From contig NZ_JAPZVR010000013.1 of the NCBI RefSeq assembly GCF_027622855.1, positions 32,241 to 74,097 of the forward strand: a DNA stretch of 41,857 nt, read 5' to 3'. Both the position numbers and the translations under genes were made by a program. Positions 3,850 to 37,551 of the stretch are shown here, one piece after another. The first letter of the stretch is position 1; each line of letters opens with the position of its first letter. The notes below the pieces were generated by a model. The model saw nothing but the letters and a program-made list of their open reading frames with translations. It did no database searches and was not told the DNA's origin. This DNA is from Glycomyces algeriensis. Its GTDB lineage: Bacteria; Actinomycetota; Actinomycetes; Mycobacteriales; Micromonosporaceae.

Positions 3850-3989
3850 GCGGTGGGTTCCTTCGGGCGGGTCGAAATCGGGGCAAGGCGGCCAATGCTA
3901 GCGCCGTTCCATCAGTGAGGCCATTTTGACGGAGGCGCCGCCCGGGGCGGCGCGATACCATCAGTGCCCGATCGACTACGGGGGCGTGT

Positions 3990-27072: not shown

Positions 27073-29826
27073 TCACATGTCCGGGACGGTGAAGACCATC
27101 GCGTTGTTCCCGCCGGAGAGGATCGCGAGGAGGTCGCCCGAGAGGGAGGCGTGCTCGACGAGGTCCGCGCCGACGTCCGCCGTCGCCGTGGCCTTGCCGG
27201 TCGCCATGTCCAGCACGGAGACCTCCCAGCCGCCCATGTGGGAGCCGTCCATCACCGCCCGGCCGCCCTGGATCGCCAGGGCCGAGACGAACAGCTCGCC
27301 CTCCACGATCTCGCCGCCGTCGAAGTCCAGGACCCGTGCGGTGTCGACGGTGTCGAAGGTCTGGTCGCCGAGGACCAGTGCGTCCGGCGAGGTGTACCAG
27401 TGCCCTTCGGCGGACCAGTCGAGCACGGCCTCCCAGGCCTGCTCGCCCGTGGCGGTGTCGTAGGCGACGGTCTTGTCGGCGTCGGTGTGGTCGAGGGCGA
27501 CGCACACCAGGTGGGGCCCGCAGGCTTTGACCTGCTGGACGCTGAGGGTGACGTCGAGCGGGATGCTCCACGCCGTGGCGATCTCGGCGGTCCCGCCGCT
27601 CCCCGCCGCGATGAAGTCGTCGAGCGAGTAGGCGACCAGGGTGTCGCGGCCGGGAGAGGACTCCTCGTTGGCGCGGCCGATCACGTAGCCGTCGAACACG
27701 GTCCAGAAGTCGTCGTCGACCGGGAGCGGCCCTGCGGCGGTCTGGTCGCCGGTGGCGGCGTCGCGCACGATCGCCGTCCCCTCCTCGGGGTTCAGGTCCA
27801 CGACCTGGCCGGTGGCGATGAGGTTGTCGTAGAGCGAGTACGAGTCCGGAGGCACGGTCCCGACCGGGTCCTCCGCGCCCTCGTCCCAGACGGTCGCGGC
27901 GCGGATGCGGTAGTCGTCGATGGTGTACAGGCTCTCGGGGCCCTTCTCGTGCCACACCTCCTCGCCCGTGGTGAGGTCGATGCGGATGGCGGCGTTGTCG
28001 TCGAAGCCGTCGCGCTGCTCCACCAAGACCTCGGTGCCGTAGAACGCGACGTCGTTGCGGTACTCCCACGGCTGCTTCCACAGCAGCTCACCGGAGTCGA
28101 GCTGGACGACGGCGCGCATGGTCATGCCCTCGTCGGTGGCGGAGCGGACGGCGTCGATCACGATCAGGTCGCCCACGATCATCAGGTGCAGCTCTTCGGG
28201 TTCGAGCTCGTACTCGTTCGTCCACAGTGTGTCGCCGCTGGTGCTCACCGCGTTGACGACGGTGGACCCGACGATGACGCTGGCGATGACCGCGATGTTC
28301 TCACTGGCGGCCACGGTGGCGATGCCGCCGGCGGGGAGCTGCTCCTCGTACACGGACACGAGGTCGGGCCCGGTCTCGACGCCGAGGCCCTCCATGATGC
28401 CGCCGGGGTCGAAGTCGTCGCCGAAGACGTCGCCCCAGTTGACGATGCCGCTGAACGCCACCGTGACGAAGAGGACCGCGACCAGGGCGATCGCCGAGAA
28501 GACCGAGGCGAACGCCCGGGTCCGCTTTCCCGACCGCACCCCCGGCAGCGGTCCAGTGTGGACGACCGGTCGGAACGGCAGCTGCGCCTGGGGCTGCGGC
28601 GTGACGGGCGCGTGCGGCGGGAGGCTCACAGGACTGGGCTGGGAGTACGCGGGCTGCGGGAACGGCGAGTAGGCGACCGCGGGCGCGCCCTGCTGGGGCG
28701 TCGCGGGCGGGCTCTGGACCTCCCCCTGGTCGGTGACGCTGAACCGCAAGGCGCCGAACGCGACCGGCAGTTCGGGCTGCTCGGGGACGGCGGGCGCGAC
28801 GCCGAGGCGGGCGTGCAGGCGGGTGGCCACGAGGGGCATGCGGCTGGAACCGCCGACGAGCAGGAGCGCGGTGAGCTCGCCGGGGTTGACGCCCGCGCGT
28901 TCGACGGTGCGGCGGGTCTCGTCGACCGCTCGTGACACGAGCGGGTCCGCGAGGGACTGGAGTTCGTCGCGGGTGAGGTGCAGGCCCATCGGGTTGTGGC
29001 CGGTGAGGGCCACGGGCGCGGTGGAGGTGCGCGAGAGCATCTCCTTCGCCGCGCGCACCTCGCCCCAGAACGCGAGGCGGTCGCGCAGGTCCGCGGTGGT
29101 CTCCGGCTCCGAGAGCCGTTGCCACAGTTCGGGATCGCGCCCGGAGATGACGCGGCCGAGGTGGGCCGAGAGGGCCATGTCCACATCGAGACCGCCGAGG
29201 TCGTCCAGGCCGCCCACGGCGAGGGTGCGGAACCGCCCGGTGTCGTCGTTCTCGCGGCGGACCACGGCCACGTCGAACGTGCCGCCGCCGAAGTCGAAGA
29301 TGGCGACGGCCCCGCCGCGCGGGATGTCCTGGCCGAGGATCTCGGCGCAGTAGGTCGCGGCGGCGATCGGCTCGGCCAGGAGCCTCACCCGCCCGAACCC
29401 GGCGAGGACCGCGGCGCGTTCGAGGACGGCCCGGCGGACCGGGCCCCAGTCGGCGGGGTACGTCAGGACCGTCTCGGTCGGGCGCTGCCCCGCGGACGCC
29501 GCGGCTTCGGCGACGCGGCGCAGGCCGGTGGCCAGCAGCTCCTCGACCGGGACCTCGCGGTCGCCGAGGAGCACGGCGCCGTCGTCGATGCGGCGCTTGG
29601 GGTGCGGCTCGAACCGCGAGGGTTCGGACGCGGCGAGCCGCTGGGCGTCGCGGCCGGTGTGGAGCTCGCCGTCCGCGTCGAGGTACACGCCCGACGGGAG
29701 CAGCGGCGAGCCGTCGAAGAGCAGGGAGCGGGGTTCGGCGCCTTCGCGGCCGACCACGGCGACGGTGTGGGTGGTGCCGAGGTCGACGGCGAGCCATACG
29801 GGGGTCTGCAAGCTGGTCCTGTTCAT
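27073..29826 (-). CDS. Hsp70-type ATPase fused to a membrane helix and PQQ-like beta-propeller
   Basis: A 917-residue fusion. Residues 10-365 are a DnaK-like nucleotide-binding domain: phosphate-1 AVDLGTTHTVAVV (13-25), YPADWGPVRR (123-132), AEPIAAA (151-157), phosphate-2 FDFGGGTFDVAVV (177-189) and the adenosine motif LLVGGSSRMP (322-331). The usual substrate-binding domain is absent. In its place are a Pro/Gln-rich linker (about 370-430), one membrane helix (about 438-460) and a 450-residue extracytoplasmic domain with repeated 'TSGDTLW', 'DSGELLWKQPW', 'TTGEEVWHE' and 'ATGEQAWEA' motifs of PQQ/WD-type propellers. ATP state inside could thus be linked to sensing outside. ATG 29826 is chosen; ATG 29862 is in frame, and neither has a good ribosome site. 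It lies downstream of two other membrane genes. Confidence 0.88.
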   Translation of the reverse strand: MNRTSLQTPVWLAVDLGTTHTVAVVGREGAEPRSLLFDGSPLLPSGVYLDADGELHTGRDAQRLAASEPSRFEPHPKRRIDDGAVLLGDREVPVEELLATGLRRVAEAAASAGQRPTETVLTYPADWGPVRRAVLERAAVLAGFGRVRLLAEPIAAATYCAEILGQDIPRGGAVAIFDFGGGTFDVAVVRRENDDTGRFRTLAVGGLDDLGGLDVDMALSAHLGRVISGRDPELWQRLSEPETTADLRDRLAFWGEVRAAKEMLSRTSTAPVALTGHNPMGLHLTRDELQSLADPLVSRAVDETRRTVERAGVNPGELTALLLVGGSSRMPLVATRLHARLGVAPAVPEQPELPVAFGALRFSVTDQGEVQSPPATPQQGAPAVAYSPFPQPAYSQPSPVSLPPHAPVTPQPQAQLPFRPVVHTGPLPGVRSGKRTRAFASVFSAIALVAVLFVTVAFSGIVNWGDVFGDDFDPGGIMEGLGVETGPDLVSVYEEQLPAGGIATVAASENIAVIASVIVGSTVVNAVSTSGDTLWTNEYELEPEELHLMIVGDLIVIDAVRSATDEGMTMRAVVQLDSGELLWKQPWEYRNDVAFYGTEVLVEQRDGFDDNAAIRIDLTTGEEVWHEKGPESLYTIDDYRIRAATVWDEGAEDPVGTVPPDSYSLYDNLIATGQVVDLNPEEGTAIVRDAATGDQTAAGPLPVDDDFWTVFDGYVIGRANEESSPGRDTLVAYSLDDFIAAGSGGTAEIATAWSIPLDVTLSVQQVKACGPHLVCVALDHTDADKTVAYDTATGEQAWEAVLDWSAEGHWYTSPDALVLGDQTFDTVDTARVLDFDGGEIVEGELFVSALAIQGGRAVMDGSHMGGWEVSVLDMATGKATATADVGADLVEHASLSGDLLAILSGGNNAMVFTVPDM

Positions 29827-29938
29827 GGGCGGTGGCGAGGGGGCAGGGGACCGGCGATCCATCGCGAGGATATCCCGGCTCGATCTACTGTGGCACCGCC
29901 GTCCGACATCGCCGTGGGGCGGCGGCCTCCGGACCCGG

Positions 29939-29967
29939 CCCCGGTCCCGTCGGCGACGGGACCGGGG
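29939..29967 (-). terminator. Terminator-like hairpin
   Basis: 13-bp perfect arms CCCCGGTCCCGTC / GACGGGACCGGGG with a three-base loop, 17 bases past the stop of the two-helix membrane protein. It would reduce read-through to the Hsp70-fusion gene. Confidence 0.7.
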
Positions 29968-29983
29968 AGCCGCCCTGGCGGGC

Positions 29984-30772
29984 TCACGGGTTGAGGGCGG
30001 TGAGGACGACCAGCTCCGACTCGTCGTGCGGGAGGTACCGGACCCGCACGACCATGCCCGGCTGGAGCTGCGCGAGCGCACCGGAGTCGACCGGCTTGCG
30101 CTGCGAGAGGTCGAACGTGGTCTGGTCGGCGCGGGTGACCCGGAACTGGAGGTCCATGACGGCCCGGTCGCCCTGGATCTCCCCGGTCGGGCTGATCGCG
30201 AGCACGACCGCGCGGGCGTCGGTGCCCTGCTCGGAGATCTGCAGCTGGCGGGGCGTGACCAGGCCCTTGGCGACCCGCACGCGGTCGAGCACGGCCTGCA
30301 GCTCCTGCTGCGGGGCGTCCGCGGCGATCGCGATCTTCCCGTCGGTGCTGCCGGGGCGGTAGCGGACGGGCAGGACCGCGCCGGGGACGACCGCGGCGAG
30401 CTCGGTGATGTCGATGATGGCCTTGGCGACACCGCGGAACGACTGGCCGTCCATGGTGTCGACGTCGAAGAGGATCTCCAGCTGCGGCTGGTCGTTGATG
30501 CTCAGGCCGGTGCGGGACGCGGAGACGACGGTGCCCATGGCGATCGGGGCCCCTTCGAAGCCCTTCGCGCCGAGCCCGCGCATCTCGCGGATCGCGCCGT
30601 CGGCCATGCGGGACACGGAGAAGAACGGCAGGGTGGTGAGCAGGATGATCGGCCCGGCCAGCCACCCGTTCACCCACGCGACGGGGGCGTCGCTGCCGAG
30701 GCTGGTGAGGACGTAGACGACCGTGAGGGCGGCGCCGATGACGGTGCCGATGACGGCGATGGTCTTGAACAT
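29984..30772 (-). CDS. Two-helix membrane protein with paired beta-barrel-like domains
   Basis: A 262-residue protein I cannot name. Two membrane helices lie at the N-terminus (FKTIAVIGTVIGAALTVVYVLTSL and VNGWLAGPIILLTTLPFF). The rest is beta-rich and repeats a small domain twice: MGTVVSASRTGLSINDQPQLEILFDVDT...VVPGAVLPVRYRPG and RAVVLAISPTGEIQGDRAVMDLQFRVTR...LQPGMVVRVRYLP. This resembles DUF3592/OB-like folds on the cytoplasmic side. The ATG has AAAGGAA upstream and a promoter element shared with the next gene. It sits between two beta-propeller membrane proteins and may form a complex with them. Confidence 0.75.
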   Translation of the reverse strand: MFKTIAVIGTVIGAALTVVYVLTSLGSDAPVAWVNGWLAGPIILLTTLPFFSVSRMADGAIREMRGLGAKGFEGAPIAMGTVVSASRTGLSINDQPQLEILFDVDTMDGQSFRGVAKAIIDITELAAVVPGAVLPVRYRPGSTDGKIAIAADAPQQELQAVLDRVRVAKGLVTPRQLQISEQGTDARAVVLAISPTGEIQGDRAVMDLQFRVTRADQTTFDLSQRKPVDSGALAQLQPGMVVRVRYLPHDESELVVLTALNP

Positions 30773-30841: not shown

Positions 30842-32101
30842 TCAGCCCCGCCCGATCTCGACCCGTTCGATCGAGCCTTCGGGGGCGACGATGACGAGGT
30901 CGGCGAGCCAGTAGGAGCCTTCGGGCGCGGCGATCACGACGGTGTGGCCGGCCGGGCCGGTGAGCGCGCGGCCGAGGCGGCTGCCGGTGTCGAGGGAGGC
31001 GGTGACCTGGCCGGTGGCGAGGTCGACGACGTGGAGCGCGTACGCCTCCACGGCCGGTTCGGGCTGGTGCTCGACGAGGACGTGCCCGGCGCCGGCCCCG
31101 GCCGCGGTGGTGCCCATGCCGGTCCACAGGTCCTGGCCCGCGCTGGCGGCGTCCTCCATGAACTCGGCGATGAGCGCGTCCACGTCGATCTCGGCCGTGA
31201 ACGAGGAGACGAGCGCGGTCTGGTCGAGGACGATCCCGGCCCCGTAGAACACGCGGGTGCCCAGGGCGCGTTCGCCTTCGGCGTCGCTGAGGACGAGGCC
31301 GCCGCCGAGCGCGTTGTCGGCGACCGGTTCGATCCGCACCGTGCTCTCGCCGTCGGCGAGCAGCGCTTCGGTGCTGGTCATGCCGCCGATGTCGGGCACG
31401 GGCCCTTCGGCGAAGAGCACGCCGGACCAGGTGGCGGTGGTGTCCGCGTCGGCCGGGGTCGCTTCGAGCTGGTCGAGGGCGATCGTGTGGACGCCGCCGT
31501 TCACATCGAGGGCCACGACCGCGCCGAGCGCGGGGTCGAAGCCGTAGGCCGCGCCCGAGACCGACTGGGAGCCTTCAAGTCCGGGGATCTCGCCCGCTGC
31601 GGTGACGGTGTCCCCGTCGGCGAGGTCGAGGATCATGAGGCCGTCGTCCGAGGCCAGGTACGCGTAGTGCTCGCCGGCCGCGACCACGGCCGTCCTCCAG
31701 GCCAGCTCCTCGGAGAGCCGCACGTCCCATGCGGTATCGCCCGTGGCCAGGTCGACCGCGGCGATCCGCACCTCGAACATCTCGTGCTCGAACGAGGAGA
31801 TCGGGTCCCCGGACCCGTTGCGGTCGTAGGGGACCAGCGCGAGGTCGGTGCCGTCGTAGTGCGCGAAGCCGACCCCGGACTGGATCGCGATGTCGGGCTC
31901 GGGCGCGGTCAGGTACTCGGCGCCGATCGCGATCCCGCCGATGCCGACGGACGGGATGACCACGAGCCCGAGCAGGCCGAAGCCGCGCGGGCGCCGGGTC
32001 TTCGGCGTCAGCGGGTGGCTCGGCGTGCCGTACGGGGACTGCACGGTCTGCCGGTGGGTGGGGAACGGCCGGGCCGACGAGTATCCGGGGACGTGGCTCA
32101 T
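30842..32101 (-). CDS. Membrane-anchored PQQ-like beta-propeller protein
   Basis: A 419-residue protein. It has a short cytoplasmic tail (MSHVPGYSSARPFPTHRQ...KTRRPRG), one membrane helix (about 41-60: FGLLGLVVIPSVGIGGIAIGA), then a beta-propeller-like extracytoplasmic domain with DLATGDTAWDVRLSEE, YAYLASDDGLMILDLADGDTV, GAVVALDVNGGVHTIALDQ and DLATGQVTASLDTGSR. It may belong to what is called the PA2928 family, recalled from memory. There is no recognisable catalytic motif. The ATG follows AAGGAG. It is the first gene of the leftward membrane set and divergent from the CHAT operon across 109 bases. Confidence 0.8.
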   Translation of the reverse strand: MSHVPGYSSARPFPTHRQTVQSPYGTPSHPLTPKTRRPRGFGLLGLVVIPSVGIGGIAIGAEYLTAPEPDIAIQSGVGFAHYDGTDLALVPYDRNGSGDPISSFEHEMFEVRIAAVDLATGDTAWDVRLSEELAWRTAVVAAGEHYAYLASDDGLMILDLADGDTVTAAGEIPGLEGSQSVSGAAYGFDPALGAVVALDVNGGVHTIALDQLEATPADADTTATWSGVLFAEGPVPDIGGMTSTEALLADGESTVRIEPVADNALGGGLVLSDAEGERALGTRVFYGAGIVLDQTALVSSFTAEIDVDALIAEFMEDAASAGQDLWTGMGTTAAGAGAGHVLVEHQPEPAVEAYALHVVDLATGQVTASLDTGSRLGRALTGPAGHTVVIAAPEGSYWLADLVIVAPEGSIERVEIGRG

Positions 32102-32150
32102 GACGGGTCTCCTTGAACGCTGTGGGCTCCAGCGTCGCCGCGGTTCGGCC

Positions 32151-32169
32151 CCTACCGATCACAACTTCG
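32151..32169 (-). promoter_or_regulatory. Shared upstream element, copy 2
   Basis: The plus strand reads CCTACCGATCACAACTTCG, matching the copy near 30821 at most positions and at the same distance from its gene's ATG. It also lies in the divergent gap upstream of the CHAT operon. Confidence 0.5.
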
Positions 32170-32210
32170 TCGACGCCCGCGGGCGGCCGGACCCGACTAC
32201 ACTTCGCGTC

Positions 32211-33488
32211 ATGGTGCAGAGCATCGCGGCCGGGGCGGCCGTGCCCCGGGGCATGCTCATCGCTGACGCCTGGGCCCAGCTCGGCGACGGCGTCGCGCCC
32301 CTGAGCAACCCGTCGGGCCGCCCGCTCGCGCGCACCGTGAAGCTCCTCCTCGACCCGCTCGTGCTGCGCCCCAACCTGAACCCCCGGTTCGCGGGCGGCA
32401 TGGTCGGCGTCGAGCACGTGGACGAGCTGCGCCGCGTCCTCCTCGACGCGGGCCCGGCGCTGGCCGCGACCGCGGCCTGGTTCCAGCTGCTGAAGAAGGC
32501 CCGGCGGCGCGCGGGTGTCACCGAGGGCAACCCGCAGGACCTCTACTTCCAGCGCTGCTACGAGCTCGCGCATGAGCACGGCGACCCGCGCGGCGTGCCG
32601 GATGCGGAGTCGATCGCGGCGGAGGCTGTCGCGGAGGTGCGGGCGGAGCGCGGCGAGGTCACCGTGGACCGCCTGCGCCGCTTCATGACCGACCCCGACC
32701 AGGTGGTGCGCCTCGCCGGACTCCTCCAGCACGCCTGGGAGGACAGGCCCGCGCCCGGCCCAGCGCCGCAGGACGGGCTCACCGCGTTCCTCGACACGTG
32801 TGCCACCAAGCCGGACGAGCGCGCATGGAAGGCCTTGGCGGCGAACGGAACCGGCACGGCCGAGGCCGCCGAGCTCGACCGACCTCGTGTCGCCCTGAAC
32901 TACGGCCTCACGGCCCGGGAACGCCCCGCGCCCCCGGCGCTGGGCGACCGGGCCTCGAAGCGGCAGCTCCCGCCCCCCTTCGACAGGTCCATCATGGAGC
33001 GACTGTTCGCCGCGTTCACCGCGGCGTTCCACCGCGAGTCCATGGCCGACATCCCCTCGATGGTCGTCGGCGAGATCCACCGCTCCGCCGCCGCCTGGCA
33101 GCTCGCCGAGGAACCCAGCCGCGTCGCCATGGCGCTCGGACGCGACGCCAGCAACGGAATCGACTACTGGGTCGACCCGCCCTCGACCTCGGACGCCAAC
33201 GCGCGCTTGCAGGCCCGCTACGCCCGCGAAGCGTACGTCCACGCCGTCCACCGGCAGCCCGACCCCGAATCGACGAACGTCCCCGACGACCTCAAACACG
33301 AGATCCTGTACGTCCAGGTCCCCTACCTGCGGCGCCTCTGGGCCCGCCTGCACGGCCGCGAACTGCGCGGCGAGACCACCGCCGCCGCCGACGTCTGGGA
33401 CCTCCTCGACGGGGTCTTCCGGTCGGTCCTCCTCGACCAGCGCGACCGGCTCAGGCGCCTCCTCGAACGGGACGGAGGCCGGTCATGA
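32211..33488 (+). CDS. Unrecognised protein, first gene of the CHAT operon
   Basis: A 425-residue soluble, mostly helical protein with no domain I recognise. Visible features are an N-terminal DAWAQLGDGVAPLS segment, a helical middle (FQLLKKARRRAG, VEHVDELRRVLLDAG), a stretch VTVDRLRRFMTDPDQVVRLAGLLQHAWED, a Pro-rich break near 187 (APGPAPQ) and a second helical domain (FAAFTAAFHRESMADIPSMVVGEIHRSAAAWQLAEEPSRVAMALG) followed by IDYWVDPPS and YVQVPYLRRLWARLHGREL. No signal peptide or membrane segment is seen. It is the promoter-proximal gene; its stop overlaps the start of the next gene. Possibly an adaptor or target of the TPR-CHAT pair. Confidence 0.75.
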   Translation: MVQSIAAGAAVPRGMLIADAWAQLGDGVAPLSNPSGRPLARTVKLLLDPLVLRPNLNPRFAGGMVGVEHVDELRRVLLDAGPALAATAAWFQLLKKARRRAGVTEGNPQDLYFQRCYELAHEHGDPRGVPDAESIAAEAVAEVRAERGEVTVDRLRRFMTDPDQVVRLAGLLQHAWEDRPAPGPAPQDGLTAFLDTCATKPDERAWKALAANGTGTAEAAELDRPRVALNYGLTARERPAPPALGDRASKRQLPPPFDRSIMERLFAAFTAAFHRESMADIPSMVVGEIHRSAAAWQLAEEPSRVAMALGRDASNGIDYWVDPPSTSDANARLQARYAREAYVHAVHRQPDPESTNVPDDLKHEILYVQVPYLRRLWARLHGRELRGETTAAADVWDLLDGVFRSVLLDQRDRLRRLLERDGGRS

Positions 33489-34561
33489 CCCAGTTCACGG
33501 TCAGACGGGTGCGCGGGAGAACGGCCGTGGAATCCCGTCAGCGACCGCGCCCCCGTATCGAACTCGACAACGCGTTGCCGCCTGACGCAATGAAACCTGA
33601 CCCCGAGTGCGCCGCGCTCGTCGAGGCCCGCGGGGCGCTCCTGTACTGGCACGTCCTGGACCGCCACGCACACCCCGACGCCGAGATCTACGACATCGAT
33701 CTGGCCGCCGACTGGCTCTGGGAGATCTACGGACCCGACGCCGCCAGCGCGATCCTGAACGGCGACAACACCATCGCCACCGAATGGGACTCATCGGTAC
33801 TCGACGCCGCCCGCCGCCTCGCACACCTGCGCTGGGCCGAAGCATGGTGGCCGTCCTCCCACGCCGCCGCCATACCCGCACTGAACACCGGCCTCCTACG
33901 GGCCGAAGCCGCCTGGCGCACCGCCGCCGTCGAACACCTCCTCGACGACGACGAAGCGGTCGAACGCGCCCTCGCCGACGCCGACCTGACCGCAGCGGAA
34001 GCCCTCGACCCCGACCTCGGCGCCGCAGCGCTCACGGCCGCAGTCGAAGCGATCGCCGAGGACTACGGCGTCGAACTGCGCCGCGAACCCGTCGAGCCCC
34101 GGCGCGAGGACTGGGCCCTCGCCGCAGGCGGCAGCCCCACCGTCGACTTCGCCCTCGCCAGCGGCGGCGGACCCGTTGCCTGGGAACGTGTCCCCCAAGG
34201 CCTGGTCGACGCCGCAGCCGGGGCCACCTGGACCCTGACGCAGCGCGAAGGCGGCCTCGTCGTCCACGTCACCGTCCCGGCCGCACCCGAGCCCCGCGAC
34301 CTTCGCCTGGCCGCCGCGATCGGCGGCGTCGAGATCCCGCTGCAGCTCGACCCCGCCACCGGGAACTTCACGGGCGAAGCCGAAGCGCCGCAAGCGTTCC
34401 TCATACTCCCCGCCTCCCAGCGCGAGCTGTGGGTCCACTCCCCCGACTTCGTACGCGAACCGGTCAACGCCGAGGAAGCACCGCACCGTGCCGCGATCAT
34501 CGAGTACGCCCGCGAACGCCTCACCGACCCCGACGCCAGCCTCGCCGAGCGCGCCGCATGA
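33485..34561 (+). CDS. Unrecognised protein, second gene of the CHAT operon
   Basis: A 358-residue protein without a known domain. The N-terminus is basic (MTQFTVRRVRGRTAVESRQRPRPR). An Ala-rich, acidic helical centre (AAARRLAHLRWAEAWWPSS, AAVEHLLDDDEAVERALADADLTAAEALD) leads to a beta-rich C-terminal domain (WTLTQREGGLVVHVTVPAAPEP...IPLQLDPATGNFTGEAEAPQAFLIL...LWVHSPDF) that may be an immunoglobulin- or DUF-type sandwich. Its ATG overlaps the upstream stop and its end (AERAA, then TGA) is copied at the ends of the two mini-genes that follow. It is co-translated with the TPR and CHAT genes, so it probably works with them. Confidence 0.75.
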   Translation: MTQFTVRRVRGRTAVESRQRPRPRIELDNALPPDAMKPDPECAALVEARGALLYWHVLDRHAHPDAEIYDIDLAADWLWEIYGPDAASAILNGDNTIATEWDSSVLDAARRLAHLRWAEAWWPSSHAAAIPALNTGLLRAEAAWRTAAVEHLLDDDEAVERALADADLTAAEALDPDLGAAALTAAVEAIAEDYGVELRREPVEPRREDWALAAGGSPTVDFALASGGGPVAWERVPQGLVDAAAGATWTLTQREGGLVVHVTVPAAPEPRDLRLAAAIGGVEIPLQLDPATGNFTGEAEAPQAFLILPASQRELWVHSPDFVREPVNAEEAPHRAAIIEYARERLTDPDASLAERAA

Positions 34562-34656
34562 CCGACAACCTGATCGGCTTGCACGGCAACGAGATCCCGG
34601 GCCCGCGATGGGCTGAGTTCCGAGAACGCAACAACCTCACGGAGCGGGCAGCATGA
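34558..34656 (+). CDS. Mini-gene 1, 32-residue copy of the TPR protein N-terminus
   Basis: ATG at 34558 overlaps the preceding stop (ATGA). The 32-residue product contains NLIGLHGNEIPGPRW and ends LTERAA, followed by TGA. In its first 26 residues 19 match the N-terminus of the TPR protein encoded downstream. A GAGCG sequence upstream may act as its ribosome site. The peptide holds the N-terminal cap and part of the first TPR helix only. It may be a substrate, inhibitor or decoy for the TPR-CHAT pair, or a duplication remnant that kept its frame. Confidence 0.65.
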   Translation: MTDNLIGLHGNEIPGPRWAEFRERNNLTERAA

Positions 34657-34763
34657 CGGACGACCTGATCGGCCTGCACGGCAAAGAGACCCTCGCCCCG
34701 CGCTGGGCCAAGTCCTGCAAACGCAACAACGCCGACGCCAGCCCCGCGGAGCAGGCCGCATGA
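34653..34763 (+). CDS. Mini-gene 2, 36-residue copy of the TPR protein N-terminus
   Basis: ATG at 34653 overlaps the stop of mini-gene 1, and its own TGA overlaps the ATG of the TPR gene. The product includes DLIGLHGKETLAPRWAK, with 18 of the first 20 residues identical to the TPR protein, then departs (SCKRNNADASPAEQAA). A GGAGC sequence precedes the next start. It is closer to the TPR gene than mini-gene 1 is. A cysteine at residue 22 is unique to this copy. Confidence 0.65.
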   Translation: MTDDLIGLHGKETLAPRWAKSCKRNNADASPAEQAA

Positions 34764-36379
34764 CCGACGACATCATCGGCCTACACGGCAAAGAGACCCT
34801 CGGCCCGCGCTGGGCCAAGTTCCGCGAGCTGAACAACGCCGGCGCCCGCCTCGCGAGCGAGGGCCGCACCACCGAGGCGACCGCGAAGTTCCAAGAGGCC
34901 TACCGGCTCACGCTCGTGCCTGACGTCGACGCCGCCGGATACGACGCCCGCGCCCGCGTCCTCGGCAACCTCGCCTCCCTCGCCGAGCAGCACGGCGACA
35001 CCGGCGAAGCCCTCCGCCTCGCCGAAGAGGCGATCCTCTCCTGCGAACGCGCCGAACGGGAAGCAGACGACCGGTACGGCACCGTCGCCGTCCGCACCTC
35101 CGTCCTCATCCACCGCGCCCAGACACTCCAGCTCCTCGGCCGCTACGACGACGCCCTCACCGACCTCGACGCCGCCCTGCTCCTCATCGACGCCGCCGAA
35201 GACGACCACAACACCCGGCTGCTCGCGTTCAGCGTCCACAACACCCGCACCGTGCAGCTCATCCACCTCGAACACCTCGAAGCGGCCGAAGCCGCCGCCC
35301 GCCACGCCCTCGACCTCGCGAACGCCCACGACCCGCGCCTCGCCGCCCACCCCTACTCGAACCTCGCCCTGATCGCCCAGGCCCACAACGACCACGACGC
35401 CGCCATGGCCTACCTGCGCACGGCCGAGCAGATCCACACCGCCGCAGGCGACCCCGCCGCCGCCGCGCTGGCCGTCGCCAACCAGGGCCGCGCCGCCTCC
35501 CGCCGCGGCGACAACGCCACCGCCGCGCGGCTCCTCGCCACCGCCGAGCAGGCGTTCCTCGACGGCGAGCAGCCGCTGCGCGCCGCGGAGATCCGCCTCA
35601 GCCGCGCGCACGCCGCGTTCCAGAACGACGAGGTCGAGCTCGCGCGATCCCTGCTCCCGCAAGCGATCACGACGCTGCGGGACGCGGGCCACGTGGCGAT
35701 GCTCGCCGAAGCCCTCGGCCTCCAAGGCGACATGCTCGCGGCCGATGACAACCTCTTCGAGGCCGAGAACGCCTACCTCGAAGCCCGGGCGATCTACGAC
35801 GCGACCGAGGCGCGCTACCAGCTCGCACGAACCGACATGCGGCGCGCCCTCGCCCTCTCGGCCGCGGCTGAACGCGCGACCGACCCGAACGAGCAGCTGC
35901 GACTGGTGCAGTTGGCGCTGCAGCTCTCGCTCCCTTCGGCACTCGCCACGGACGCGATCCGCCACACGTACGCGCCCGGCCGGGCCCGCGAGCAGTGGGC
36001 CGCGACAGTGGCGATCCCGGCCATGGCCCACGCGCTGCACTTGGCCGCGGCTCTGCAGGACGGGGCGCTGGTCGCCGAACTCCTCGAGCACATGAGCGGC
36101 ACGATGTCACTCCACGCCCCGAGCCCGGCCGCCGCATTCTCCACGGGCATCGATGAGTTGGAGGCCCCGCTGTTCCCCGCTGCGGCCGAACAGCTCTCGT
36201 TCGCCGCGTCAGCGTTCGTCACCGGCGTGTCGCCGGACTTCCCGGCCCCGGAGTTCTCGCTGCCGCCCCGAGTGCGCGTCAACCCGAACCGCCCGTCCGC
36301 ACTCGAACCGTGGATCGCCGAGACCGAGCAGCGCTACGGCTTCGCGATCCGCTCCGACCAGGTGGTCGACGCATGGTGA
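34760..36379 (+). CDS. TPR-repeat protein, partner of the CHAT protease
   Basis: A 539-residue all-helical protein made of tetratricopeptide repeats, for example RARVLGNLASLAEQHGDTGEALRLAEEAI, VLIHRAQTLQLLGRYDDALTDLDAALLL, PYSNLALIAQAHNDHDAAMAYLRTAEQI and ALAVANQGRAASRRGDNATAARLLATAEQAF. TPRs run from about 18 to 380; the last 150 residues are less regular and end VVDAW. The N-terminus (DIIGLHGKETLGPRW) is the segment duplicated in the two mini-genes upstream. Its stop overlaps the start of the CHAT gene by seven bases. TPR proteins act as scaffolds or sensors for CHAT proteases (as in the Csx29 system, where both are one polypeptide), so it probably regulates or recruits substrates for the next gene product. 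Confidence 0.88.
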   Translation: MTDDIIGLHGKETLGPRWAKFRELNNAGARLASEGRTTEATAKFQEAYRLTLVPDVDAAGYDARARVLGNLASLAEQHGDTGEALRLAEEAILSCERAEREADDRYGTVAVRTSVLIHRAQTLQLLGRYDDALTDLDAALLLIDAAEDDHNTRLLAFSVHNTRTVQLIHLEHLEAAEAAARHALDLANAHDPRLAAHPYSNLALIAQAHNDHDAAMAYLRTAEQIHTAAGDPAAAALAVANQGRAASRRGDNATAARLLATAEQAFLDGEQPLRAAEIRLSRAHAAFQNDEVELARSLLPQAITTLRDAGHVAMLAEALGLQGDMLAADDNLFEAENAYLEARAIYDATEARYQLARTDMRRALALSAAAERATDPNEQLRLVQLALQLSLPSALATDAIRHTYAPGRAREQWAATVAIPAMAHALHLAAALQDGALVAELLEHMSGTMSLHAPSPAAAFSTGIDELEAPLFPAAAEQLSFAASAFVTGVSPDFPAPEFSLPPRVRVNPNRPSALEPWIAETEQRYGFAIRSDQVVDAW

Positions 36380-37551
36380 CGCCCACGGTGCAGCTCAAGC
36401 TCGTCGACACCGACCACCTCTTCTACACATGGCGCTGGGAGCACGAGCTCGGCGCGGTCCAGAACATCATGGTCCCCGGCGAGACGGTCTGGCCGATCCT
36501 GGACGACCTCGCCGCCGCCCTCCCGACCCCCCTGCCGGGCGAGACCGTAGACCAGGCGCTCGAACGCTCCCTGAACGGCCCGCTCACCGACCGCGACCGC
36601 GAGTTCGCCCTGGCCACGGACCTCGCCCGCGCGTTGATCCCGCACCAGCTGGCGATGGAGATGAACGCCTACCTTGAGCAGGGCATCCGCCCGCATGTGA
36701 GAATCCAGCCCTCCCACGCGACCGCGCAAGTCCCTTGGGAGGCTTTGCGAGTCGACGCCGGCGAACGGTTCGTGACCAACGCCGACATGTCGGTCCTACC
36801 CCCGGCGACAGTCCGCAACGCCCCCGAACGCCGCATCACCCCATGGAATCTGGACGGCCGCGTGGCGGCCGTGCTCGACCCGAAAGTCCCGGGCACCACT
36901 GCAGCCCTCGGCTCAGTCTTGGGCCCAGAAGGCGGCGCACTAGCCGAAAGACTCGGCCTCGAGGTGACCGCCTTCCGCAGGTCCGACCAGACCCGCGACA
37001 CCCTCCAACGCGACCTCGCCGACGCCTCCCGCTTCCTCTACGTAGGACACGTCACCACCTCGACCAACGGCCTCGACGCCCGCCTCCACCTGAGCTGCGG
37101 CCCAAGCACAACCGGCCGAGCCGAGGTAGTCGCAGGCCACCGCCCCCTCACGGCGGCCGACATCGTGCTGGGACACCGTCCAGGCTCACCGGGCGGCTGG
37201 CGCATGCCCAACCGGGTAGCCCTCATCGCCTGCGAAAGCGGCGGCGAAGCCCGCTTCGCCGAACCGGTCGGCCTGGTCGCCGCCGCGATTCACGCGGGAG
37301 CCGAGTACGTGACCGCAACCCGCTGGACCTTGCCAACGGACGCCGGCCTCCGCCGCTACGCCCCCAGGGTCACCCCCGAGACAACGGCCATCCCCGAAGT
37401 AGTCCTCGCTGTCAATGAGGCCCACCAAGCCCCCGACCCGGTAGCAGCCGTGAGCGCCTGGCAGCGAACCCACGCAGCCCAATGGGAAGCCCACGGCCGT
37501 CTCGAAAACTCCCCAATAATCTGGGCAGCCTTCGGCACCACCCACGGCTGA
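36373..37551 (+). CDS. CHAT-domain caspase-like protease
   Basis: A 392-residue protein. The N-terminal 105 residues are an unassigned domain. From about 115 to 392 it is a CHAT (caspase HetF associated with TPRs) peptidase. The family start motif is TAQVPWEALRV (117-127), followed by catalytic His226 in LYVGHVTTS, the strand RVALIACESGG with catalytic Cys287, and the late segments GAEYVTATRWTLPTDAG and WAAFGTTHG. The Cys-His dyad is complete, so proteolysis is expected. The ATG at 36373 (MVTPTVQLKL) overlaps the TPR stop. It is the last gene of the operon and converges on the AraC gene 25 bases away. Substrates are unknown. Candidates in the operon are the two mini-gene peptides and the first two proteins. 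Confidence 0.9.
   Translation: MVTPTVQLKLVDTDHLFYTWRWEHELGAVQNIMVPGETVWPILDDLAAALPTPLPGETVDQALERSLNGPLTDRDREFALATDLARALIPHQLAMEMNAYLEQGIRPHVRIQPSHATAQVPWEALRVDAGERFVTNADMSVLPPATVRNAPERRITPWNLDGRVAAVLDPKVPGTTAALGSVLGPEGGALAERLGLEVTAFRRSDQTRDTLQRDLADASRFLYVGHVTTSTNGLDARLHLSCGPSTTGRAEVVAGHRPLTAADIVLGHRPGSPGGWRMPNRVALIACESGGEARFAEPVGLVAAAIHAGAEYVTATRWTLPTDAGLRRYAPRVTPETTAIPEVVLAVNEAHQAPDPVAAVSAWQRTHAAQWEAHGRLENSPIIWAAFGTTHG

What the first reader, a model, noticed from the sequence alone, without database searches (positions are those of the whole stretch)
34558..34840. Two tandem mini-genes that repeat the N-terminus of a TPR protein in a CHAT-protease operon
Three consecutive reading frames begin with variants of M-T-D-[DN]-[LI]-I-G-L-H-G-x-E and continue through P-R-W-A. 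The first two stop after 32 and 36 residues; the third continues as the 539-residue TPR protein, followed by a CHAT protease. Every junction is an ATGA overlap, and the upstream gene and both mini-genes end in (A/T)E(R/Q)AA before TGA, so the repeat unit carries its own GAGC-type ribosome site. Frames stay open although the copies differ at both synonymous and non-synonymous positions. Because CHAT proteases are usually paired with TPR proteins and small substrates, these peptides could be substrates, inhibitors that cap the TPR superhelix, or translation-coupling devices. Duplication debris is the main alternative.
Basis: partly seen in the sequence, partly recalled or inferred. Interest (0 to 1): 0.85.

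Follow-up and report, generated by a model that had tools for sequence, protein, structure and literature searches.

The report
Mini-genes bridging a duplicated gene junction
Two tiny genes in a Glycomyces bacterium are tandem copies of the overlap between two neighbouring genes, and they likely matter as stepping stones that carry ribosomes from one gene to the next rather than as useful peptides.

Summary
A ~100-bp unit spanning the ATGA overlap between gene 2 and a TPR gene is repeated in tandem, giving two mini-ORFs of 32 and 36 codons. Each is a chimera: residues 1-26 of the TPR protein followed by a tail copied from gene 2's last codons. A profile search of 5.8 billion proteins found no other such peptide. 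In 12 Glycomyces relatives with DNA at hand, gene 2 and the TPR gene overlap directly (ATGA) in 10. The other two, G. amatae and G. paridis, carry unrelated inserts (188 and 773 bp), each again spanned by one open frame that starts on gene 2's stop and ends on the TPR start. All four spacings (95, 107, 188, 773) are 2 mod 3, the phase that coupling needs. What persists across lineages is the stop/start chain; the encoded sequence differs each time. Substitutions between copies fit near-neutral drift. I therefore read the mini-genes as in-situ duplication products that likely stay open because they relay ribosomes to the TPR gene (termination-reinitiation), similar in effect to mycobacterial MIRUs but not members. 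A peptide function (decoy, CHAT substrate) is not excluded but has little support. Translation was not measured.

The parts
31890..33488 (+). gene 1 of the operon (532-codon frame, true start uncertain, unknown family)
   Evidence: tblastn matches in 12 of 12 fetched relatives; only sub-threshold Pfam/PADLOC hit pPIWI_RE_Y
33485..34561 (+). gene 2 (358 aa, unknown family); its last codons (DASLAERAA) supply the tails of the mini-genes
   Evidence: orthologs in 12 of 12 fetched relatives; no Pfam, NCBIfam or PADLOC family
34540..34875 (+). tandem array: about three copies of the gene 2/TPR junction, spacings 95 and 107 nt
   Evidence: two overlapping TRF rows, scores 289 and 321; alignment; own-genome DNA search finds strong copies of the unit only here
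34558..34656 (+). mini-ORF 1, 32 codons: TPR N-terminus echo plus gene 2-type tail LTERAA; ATGA at both ends
34653..34763 (+). mini-ORF 2, 36 codons: TPR N-terminus echo plus gene 2-type tail ADASPAEQAA; ATGA at both ends
   Evidence: tail matches gene 2's end in the own-genome DNA search
34641..34644 (+). GGAG in the tail of mini-ORF 1, 8 nt before the mini-ORF 2 start
   Evidence: sequence
34748..34751 (+). GGAG in the tail of mini-ORF 2, 8 nt before the TPR start
   Evidence: sequence
34760..36379 (+). TPR protein, 539 aa; conserved N-terminal tail (about residues 1-15) before helix A of TPR 1 (16-33)
   Evidence: Pfam TPR hits; AlphaFold2 model mean pLDDT 85.1
36376..37551 (+). CHAT-domain protein, 391 aa, GTGA overlap with the TPR gene
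   Evidence: PF12770, E 9.3e-12; present in 12 of 12 fetched relatives

Best explanation
The two mini-genes are tandem copies of the gene 2/TPR overlap junction, likely made in place, and they are predicted to act as relay cistrons: a ribosome finishing gene 2 would restart on mini-gene 1, then mini-gene 2, then the TPR gene. Shown: every unit joins the start of the TPR gene to a copy of the end of gene 2; every stop overlaps the next start (ATGA); the spacings keep the one reading phase that makes this possible; inserts at the same junction in two other species encode different sequences yet keep the same stop/start chain. Inferred: an imperfect match between the end of gene 2 and TPR codons 26-34 primed the first duplication; copies that broke the chain were lost because TPR (and the CHAT gene behind it) would be under-translated; the peptides themselves are by-products. 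The GGAG sites at the two new junctions may compensate for the extra restarts.
For: Chimeric make-up: mini 2's end matches gene 2's end at 28 of 33 nt, and the own-genome DNA search places that tail on gene 2's end (84%, E 0.023). Imperfect homology between gene 2's end and TPR codons 21-43: score 27, shuffle 95% 19, shuffle maximum 28. The gene 2/TPR ATGA overlap is direct in 10 of 12 Glycomyces relatives, and both more distant orthologs also have an NTGA start overlapping the stop of the upstream frame. In the other 2 of 12, G. amatae (63-codon ORF) and G. paridis (258-codon ORF), the insert is bridged by one open frame beginning on gene 2's stop (ATGA) and ending on the TPR start (GTGA, ATGA). 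Spacings 95, 107, 188, 773 are all 2 mod 3. The paridis frame stays open over 257 codons where a Markov model of the insert gives 0.10, while its other two frames have 5 and 1 stops. Its third-position G+C is 0.73, against 0.92 for the window's TPR gene, and the protein search found no relative but itself, so it does not look like an ordinary protein gene. The insertions look like separate events: in the TPR tree amatae pairs with harbinensis and paridis groups with NRRL B-16210, and neither partner has an insert. SD motif: luteolus, lechevalierae, niveus and the gene 2/mini 1 junction have only GAG; both new junctions have GGAG. In 4 of 5 E. coli overlapping pairs tested, removing the SD lowered reinitiation substantially (PMC6728339 section 9).
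Against: No expression data; reinitiation was not measured. Duplicating an ATGA junction carries the terminal overlap with it, so part of the chain is inherited rather than selected, and only phase and openness are informative; the two window units are probably not independent events. Chained mini-ORFs are common by chance in this G+C-rich genome: 111 in 594,352 bases. The amatae frame is open by chance with probability 0.54. The SD gain is not secure: by duplex energy luteolus equals the mini 2/TPR junction (-5.8 kcal/mol each), harbinensis has GGAG and dulcitolivorans GAGG without any insert, and paridis shows no gain. Mini 1's changes lean to variable positions (P 0.046, one of several tests), which a peptide function would also give. 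The microhomology score falls just below the shuffle maximum, and the same comparison in G. luteolus shows none.
Confidence: 0.67

Rival explanations
1. Inert duplication debris: the copies drift neutrally and TPR translation does not depend on them because the TPR start recruits ribosomes by itself.
For: Copies differ at non-synonymous as well as synonymous sites (7 and 6 non-synonymous against 5 and 2 synonymous codons versus TPR); neutral runs keep the frames open in 62-77% of cases; mini 2 changes the near-invariant G15 and has the highest pN/pS against the 12 orthologs (0.84; TPR 0.55); GGAG sits before the TPR start.
Against: Three lineages with inserts all keep phase and an open chain, including 258 codons in paridis; the direct overlap is present in the other 10 Glycomyces loci and both distant orthologs.
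Confidence: 0.18
2. Functional peptides: the mini-proteins carry the conserved N-terminal motif of the TPR protein and compete with it for its partner (for example the CHAT protein), or serve as CHAT substrates or TPR caps.
For: Positions 7, 10, 16, 17, 18, 25 and 26, held by 36 or 37 of 37 TPR relatives, are kept in both mini-peptides; mini 1 versus TPR dN/dS is 0.15; the TPR model resembles peptide-binding TPR proteins such as LGN and Rap.
Against: No other similar short protein found in a database of 5.8 billion; 10 of 12 relatives have none and 2 have unrelated ORFs in the same place; the peptides hold only a tail outside helices and part (11 of 18 residues) of one helix; mini 2 shows no conservation signal (P 0.41) and alters G15, R22 and L24, each held by 33-36 of 37 relatives.
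Confidence: 0.12
3. Assembly or sequencing artefact.
For: Tandem repeats can be mis-assembled.
Against: The copies differ from one another at 11-16 of 78 nt, so they are not stuttered reads; the protein database lists P0001 and P0002 on a 5,559,825-base contig, which cannot belong to the 34-contig assembly used here, though it may be the same strain.
Confidence: 0.02

Closest known systems
MIRU (mycobacterial interspersed repetitive units)
   Same: Short repeats at gene starts whose internal ORF is coupled to the gene there with -4 nt spacing, thought to limit the impact on expression (review PMC12548453 section 11; the original 1997 paper was not seen).
   Different: MIRUs are described there as apparently mobile repeats found in many mycobacteria; here the unit is made of the flanking genes themselves and strong copies occur only at this junction in the genome.
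Short upstream ORFs that deliver a ribosome; engineered bicistronic design
   Same: A short cistron coupled to the next gene so that its main use is to bring a ribosome (PMC12548453 section 11; bicistronic-design papers seen only as search listings; that the leader holds the SD is recalled).
   Different: Here two in series lie between two full genes that in relatives are coupled directly.
Overlapping gene pairs with termination-reinitiation
   Same: ATGA overlap with an intragenic SD (PMC6728339, passages and section 9).
   Different: Interposed cistrons of 32-258 codons without conserved products.
mgtQ, small ORF between mgtC and mgtB of Salmonella
   Same: Intergenic small ORF acting on translation of the next gene (PMC8092293, outline with short abstract only).
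   Different: By its section titles mgtQ works through acidic residues and alternative stem-loops; neither was sought here.
Rap-Phr peptide/TPR pairs
   Same: TPR protein with a small gene beside it; Rap structures appear in the fold search.
   Different: The Phr comparison is recalled; here the peptides copy the TPR protein's own N-terminus.

Membership tests
MIRU | small ORF coupled to the neighbouring gene by a 4-nt overlap | tested here: met
   ATGA overlap at both ends of both mini-ORFs; the feature is taken from PMC12548453 section 11. Overlap was tested, coupling itself was not
MIRU | the repeat is interspersed at many loci of the genome | tested here: not met
   own-genome DNA search: strong copies only at this junction; the matches elsewhere are 16-32 nt long with E 0.006 to 0.97
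MIRU | sequence related to mycobacterial MIRU | not tested
   no MIRU sequence was fetched
Translationally coupled overlapping genes | stop and start codons overlap (ATGA/GTGA) | tested here: met
Translationally coupled overlapping genes | downstream translation depends on upstream translation | not testable with these tools
   needs reporter or ribosome profiling
Conserved small-protein family | homologous small proteins in other species | tested here: not met
   profile of 22 N-termini: of 835 candidates only P0001 and P0002 reach E 10; very short ORFs are often not called, so absence is not proof
CHAT protease (PF12770) for the downstream gene | profile match above the curated cut-off | tested here: met
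   45.4 bits against 24
TPR-CHAT of type III-E CRISPR (Craspase) | TPR and CHAT fused in one protein (as in the abstracts listed) | tested here: not met
   TPR and CHAT are separate genes here
TPR-CHAT of type III-E CRISPR (Craspase) | Cas7-11 partner gene nearby | tested here: inconclusive
   no Cas7-11-like family among the 15 window frames scanned with Pfam; the rest of the window was not scanned

The most novel reading that the evidence does not exclude
Overlap junctions are a birthplace of new genes: tandem duplication of an ATGA junction makes, in one step, an ORF that already has a start, a stop, a ribosome site and translation by coupling. At this one junction it happened in three Glycomyces lineages, giving orphan cistrons of 32, 36, 63 and 258 codons that tune how many ribosomes pass from gene 2 to the TPR/CHAT pair.
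Probability: 0.3. Interest if true: 0.7.

Novelty: new variant of a known kind. Interest (0 to 1): 0.47.

Why it matters
It would show that translational coupling constrains how operons may change: sequence can enter a coupled junction only in the right phase and open, whatever it encodes. The 3 of 13 Glycomyces loci with inserts (the window's and 2 of 12 relatives) are a natural series for measuring how much output a coupled junction loses per extra cistron. It also warns annotators against reading N-terminal echo mini-genes beside CHAT/TPR operons as peptide substrates.

Tried and rejected
Peptide-family idea: searched short proteins with a 22-row N-terminal profile; only the window's own two came back. 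dN/dS of the copies (0.44, 0.15, 0.54) and pN/pS against the 12 orthologs (mini 1 0.42, mini 2 0.84, TPR 0.55; 0.57 over 78 ortholog pairs; all) are too noisy on 22 codons to decide. RNA structure at the starts: predicted mean unpaired fraction is 0.24-0.29 at the three window junctions and 0.24-0.50 in the relatives, so no special structure is claimed. SD strengthening as the cause of the insertions: dropped as a general claim because paridis does not show it and some relatives without inserts have equally good sites. Fold of gene 2: low-confidence model (pTM 0.59), no PDB match at E 0.001 or below. CHAT protein against PDB sequences: no match at E 0.01. Conflict-system papers (listings; passages of PMC7159879) gave no match to this operon; the held text of PMC7159879 contains neither CHAT nor Glycomyces. 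My early count of relatives without mini-genes (note) missed the paridis insert; one search replaces it. My first SD table used inner GTG starts for three species; one search replaces it.

None of the listings of my eight paper searches showed a title or abstract start on a Glycomyces mini-gene of this kind; the library lacks most subscription journals.
Full report
What is there. The window lies on contig C5 of a 5.59-Mb genome. The genus is Glycomyces: contigs of its same-genus genomes have the lengths of named Glycomyces records (56,150 bases for G008:C22 and for the G. luteolus record, for example). Four genes follow one another on the + strand: gene 1, gene 2, a TPR protein and a CHAT-domain protein. 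All four have matches in the 12 relatives whose DNA was fetched. Between gene 2 and the TPR gene lie two mini-ORFs, 34558-34656 and 34653-34763. Each begins like the TPR protein and each stop codon overlaps the next start as ATGA.

How it arose. The stretch 34540-34875 is a tandem repeat (two overlapping TRF rows, scores 289 and 321). The unit crosses the gene 2/TPR junction, so each mini-ORF is a chimera: TPR-like residues 1-26 and then a gene 2-type tail of 6 (mini 1) or 10 (mini 2) residues. A search of the own genome with the 107-nt unit finds three strong copies here, with the tail also matching gene 2's end; elsewhere only matches of 16-32 nt with E from 0.006 to 0.97. Gene 2's last codons and TPR codons 26-34 share an imperfect stretch (score 27, shuffle 95% 19, maximum 28) that could have primed the duplication. 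That step is inference, and G. luteolus does not show the likeness.

Relatives. In the genus search 12 of 21 other genomes carry a full-length TPR ortholog (59-75% identity) and 9 do not. In the family search of 354 genomes two more full-length orthologs appear, both in one other genus. For the 12 Glycomyces loci I located gene 2's stop and the TPR start. In 10 of 12 they overlap directly as ATGA. In G. amatae the TPR start is displaced by 188 nt, in G. paridis by 773 nt. Both inserts begin at an ATGA on gene 2's stop, run as a single open frame of 63 and 258 codons, and end on the TPR start (GTGA, ATGA). The amatae insert begins like the old TPR start: its junction aligns to the harbinensis junction with score 57 (shuffle maximum 27), and its interior aligns to its own TPR start with score 36 (shuffle maximum 31) (repeats). 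The paridis insert shows weak repeats 150-159 nt apart (71-89% over 18-45 nt; short two-copy repeats can be chance), has third-position G+C 0.73 (the window's TPR gene has 0.92), has no Pfam match, and the protein search returned only itself. The TPR protein tree puts amatae with harbinensis, paridis with NPDC046736 and NRRL B-16210, and the window's protein with G. tritici and NPDC021274; harbinensis and NRRL B-16210 have no insert. So three separate insertions are the simplest reading. In the two distant orthologs the TPR start is also NTGA on the stop of the upstream frame; whether that frame is gene 2 was not tested.

What is conserved. The stop/start chain is kept in all 13 Glycomyces loci examined, with or without an insert. 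All spacings are 2 mod 3 (95, 107, 188, 773), the only phase in which a frame begun at one ATGA can end at the next. The two window units may stem from one event, so independent support is three events at 1 in 3 each, times openness (chance 0.54 in amatae and 0.10 in paridis). The encoded sequences differ between the three species.

Selection on the peptides. Versus TPR, mini 1 differs at 7 non-synonymous and 5 synonymous codons and mini 2 at 6 and 2, over 26 codons. Counting-method dN/dS over 22 codons is 0.15 (mini 1/TPR), 0.54 (mini 2/TPR) and 0.44 (mini 1/mini 2); against the 12 orthologs pN/pS is 0.42 for mini 1, 0.84 for mini 2 and 0.55 for TPR; for 78 ortholog pairs it is 0.57. In neutral simulation the frames stay open in 62-77% of runs; a synonymous share as high as mini 1's occurs with P 0.04-0.27 and mini 2's with P 0.38-0.74, depending on the mutation model. 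Mini 1's changes fall on variable positions more than random (P 0.046), mini 2's do not (P 0.41) (residues 5-26 only, and position 5 was left out because most relatives share the mini-gene state there). This is compatible with drift and does not exclude weak constraint on mini 1.

Structure. The TPR model (39 sequences, mean pLDDT 85.1) has residues 1-15 outside helices and helix A of the first repeat at 16-33. The mini-peptides therefore hold the tail and part of one helix, no folded domain.

Ribosome sites. The gene 2/mini 1 junction has GAG, as at the TPR start in luteolus, lechevalierae and niveus; the mini 1/mini 2 and mini 2/TPR junctions have GGAG, and the amatae TPR start has GGAGG. 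Against this: by duplex energy luteolus equals mini 2/TPR (-5.8 each); harbinensis (GGAG) and dulcitolivorans (GAGG) have such sites without an insert; in paridis the TPR start has AAGG and the gene 2/insert junction AAAGG (read). So the gain is not general. Removing the SD reduced reinitiation in 4 of 5 E. coli pairs tested (PMC6728339 section 9).

Reading. The overlap between gene 2 and TPR is the conserved property, and coupling is its likely meaning. A duplication that keeps phase leaves a relay; one that does not would be expected to cut TPR and CHAT output. The nearest known case is the MIRU: a short coupled ORF inserted at gene starts (PMC12548453 section 11; the original 1997 paper was not seen). 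Here the unit is home-made and not interspersed, so it works like a MIRU without being one. Not shown: translation of the mini-ORFs, dependence of TPR on them, and the timing relative to G. tritici, whose DNA did not come back in my searches.

Background. In 594,352 bases of this genome (10.6%) there are 202 NTGA junctions with 150 or more open codons on both sides and 111 chained mini-ORFs of 20-80 codons, many presumably chance; the two here have the highest likeness to the next N-terminus (scores 111 and 86; next 49).

Noticed in passing
34760-34840 and orthologs: The TPR family has a strongly conserved N-terminal tail (G-x-x-G-K-E-[ST]-x-G-P-R-W ... N-N; G7, G10, R17, W18 and N25 invariant in 37 sequences) ahead of and into the first TPR helix, with no known role; a docking site for the CHAT protein would be a guess.
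   Followed up: partly
L025:3219-3995: G. paridis carries a 258-codon orphan frame between gene 2 and TPR with weak repeats 150-159 nt apart and ATGA at both ends.
   Followed up: yes
L025, L026, L030 (gene 1): Gene 1 matches are split by extra stretches of about 300-600 nt in three relatives, so gene 1 also seems to take insertions.
   Followed up: no
30842-32101 (-) and 27073-30432 (-): Divergent neighbours: a conserved protein with no Pfam family (matches in 10 of the 12 fetched relatives) and a large Hsp70-like protein with a PQQ-type match.
   Followed up: no
window:31890-33485: Gene 1 has a sub-threshold match to pPIWI_RE_Y in Pfam and a weak one in PADLOC (E 0.021 and 0.011, residues 221-268), too weak to use.
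   Followed up: no
L029:3983: The G. amatae TPR protein is recorded as 493 aa starting inside the first repeat (P0036); the coupled GTG start at 3983 gives a full-length protein.
   Followed up: partly
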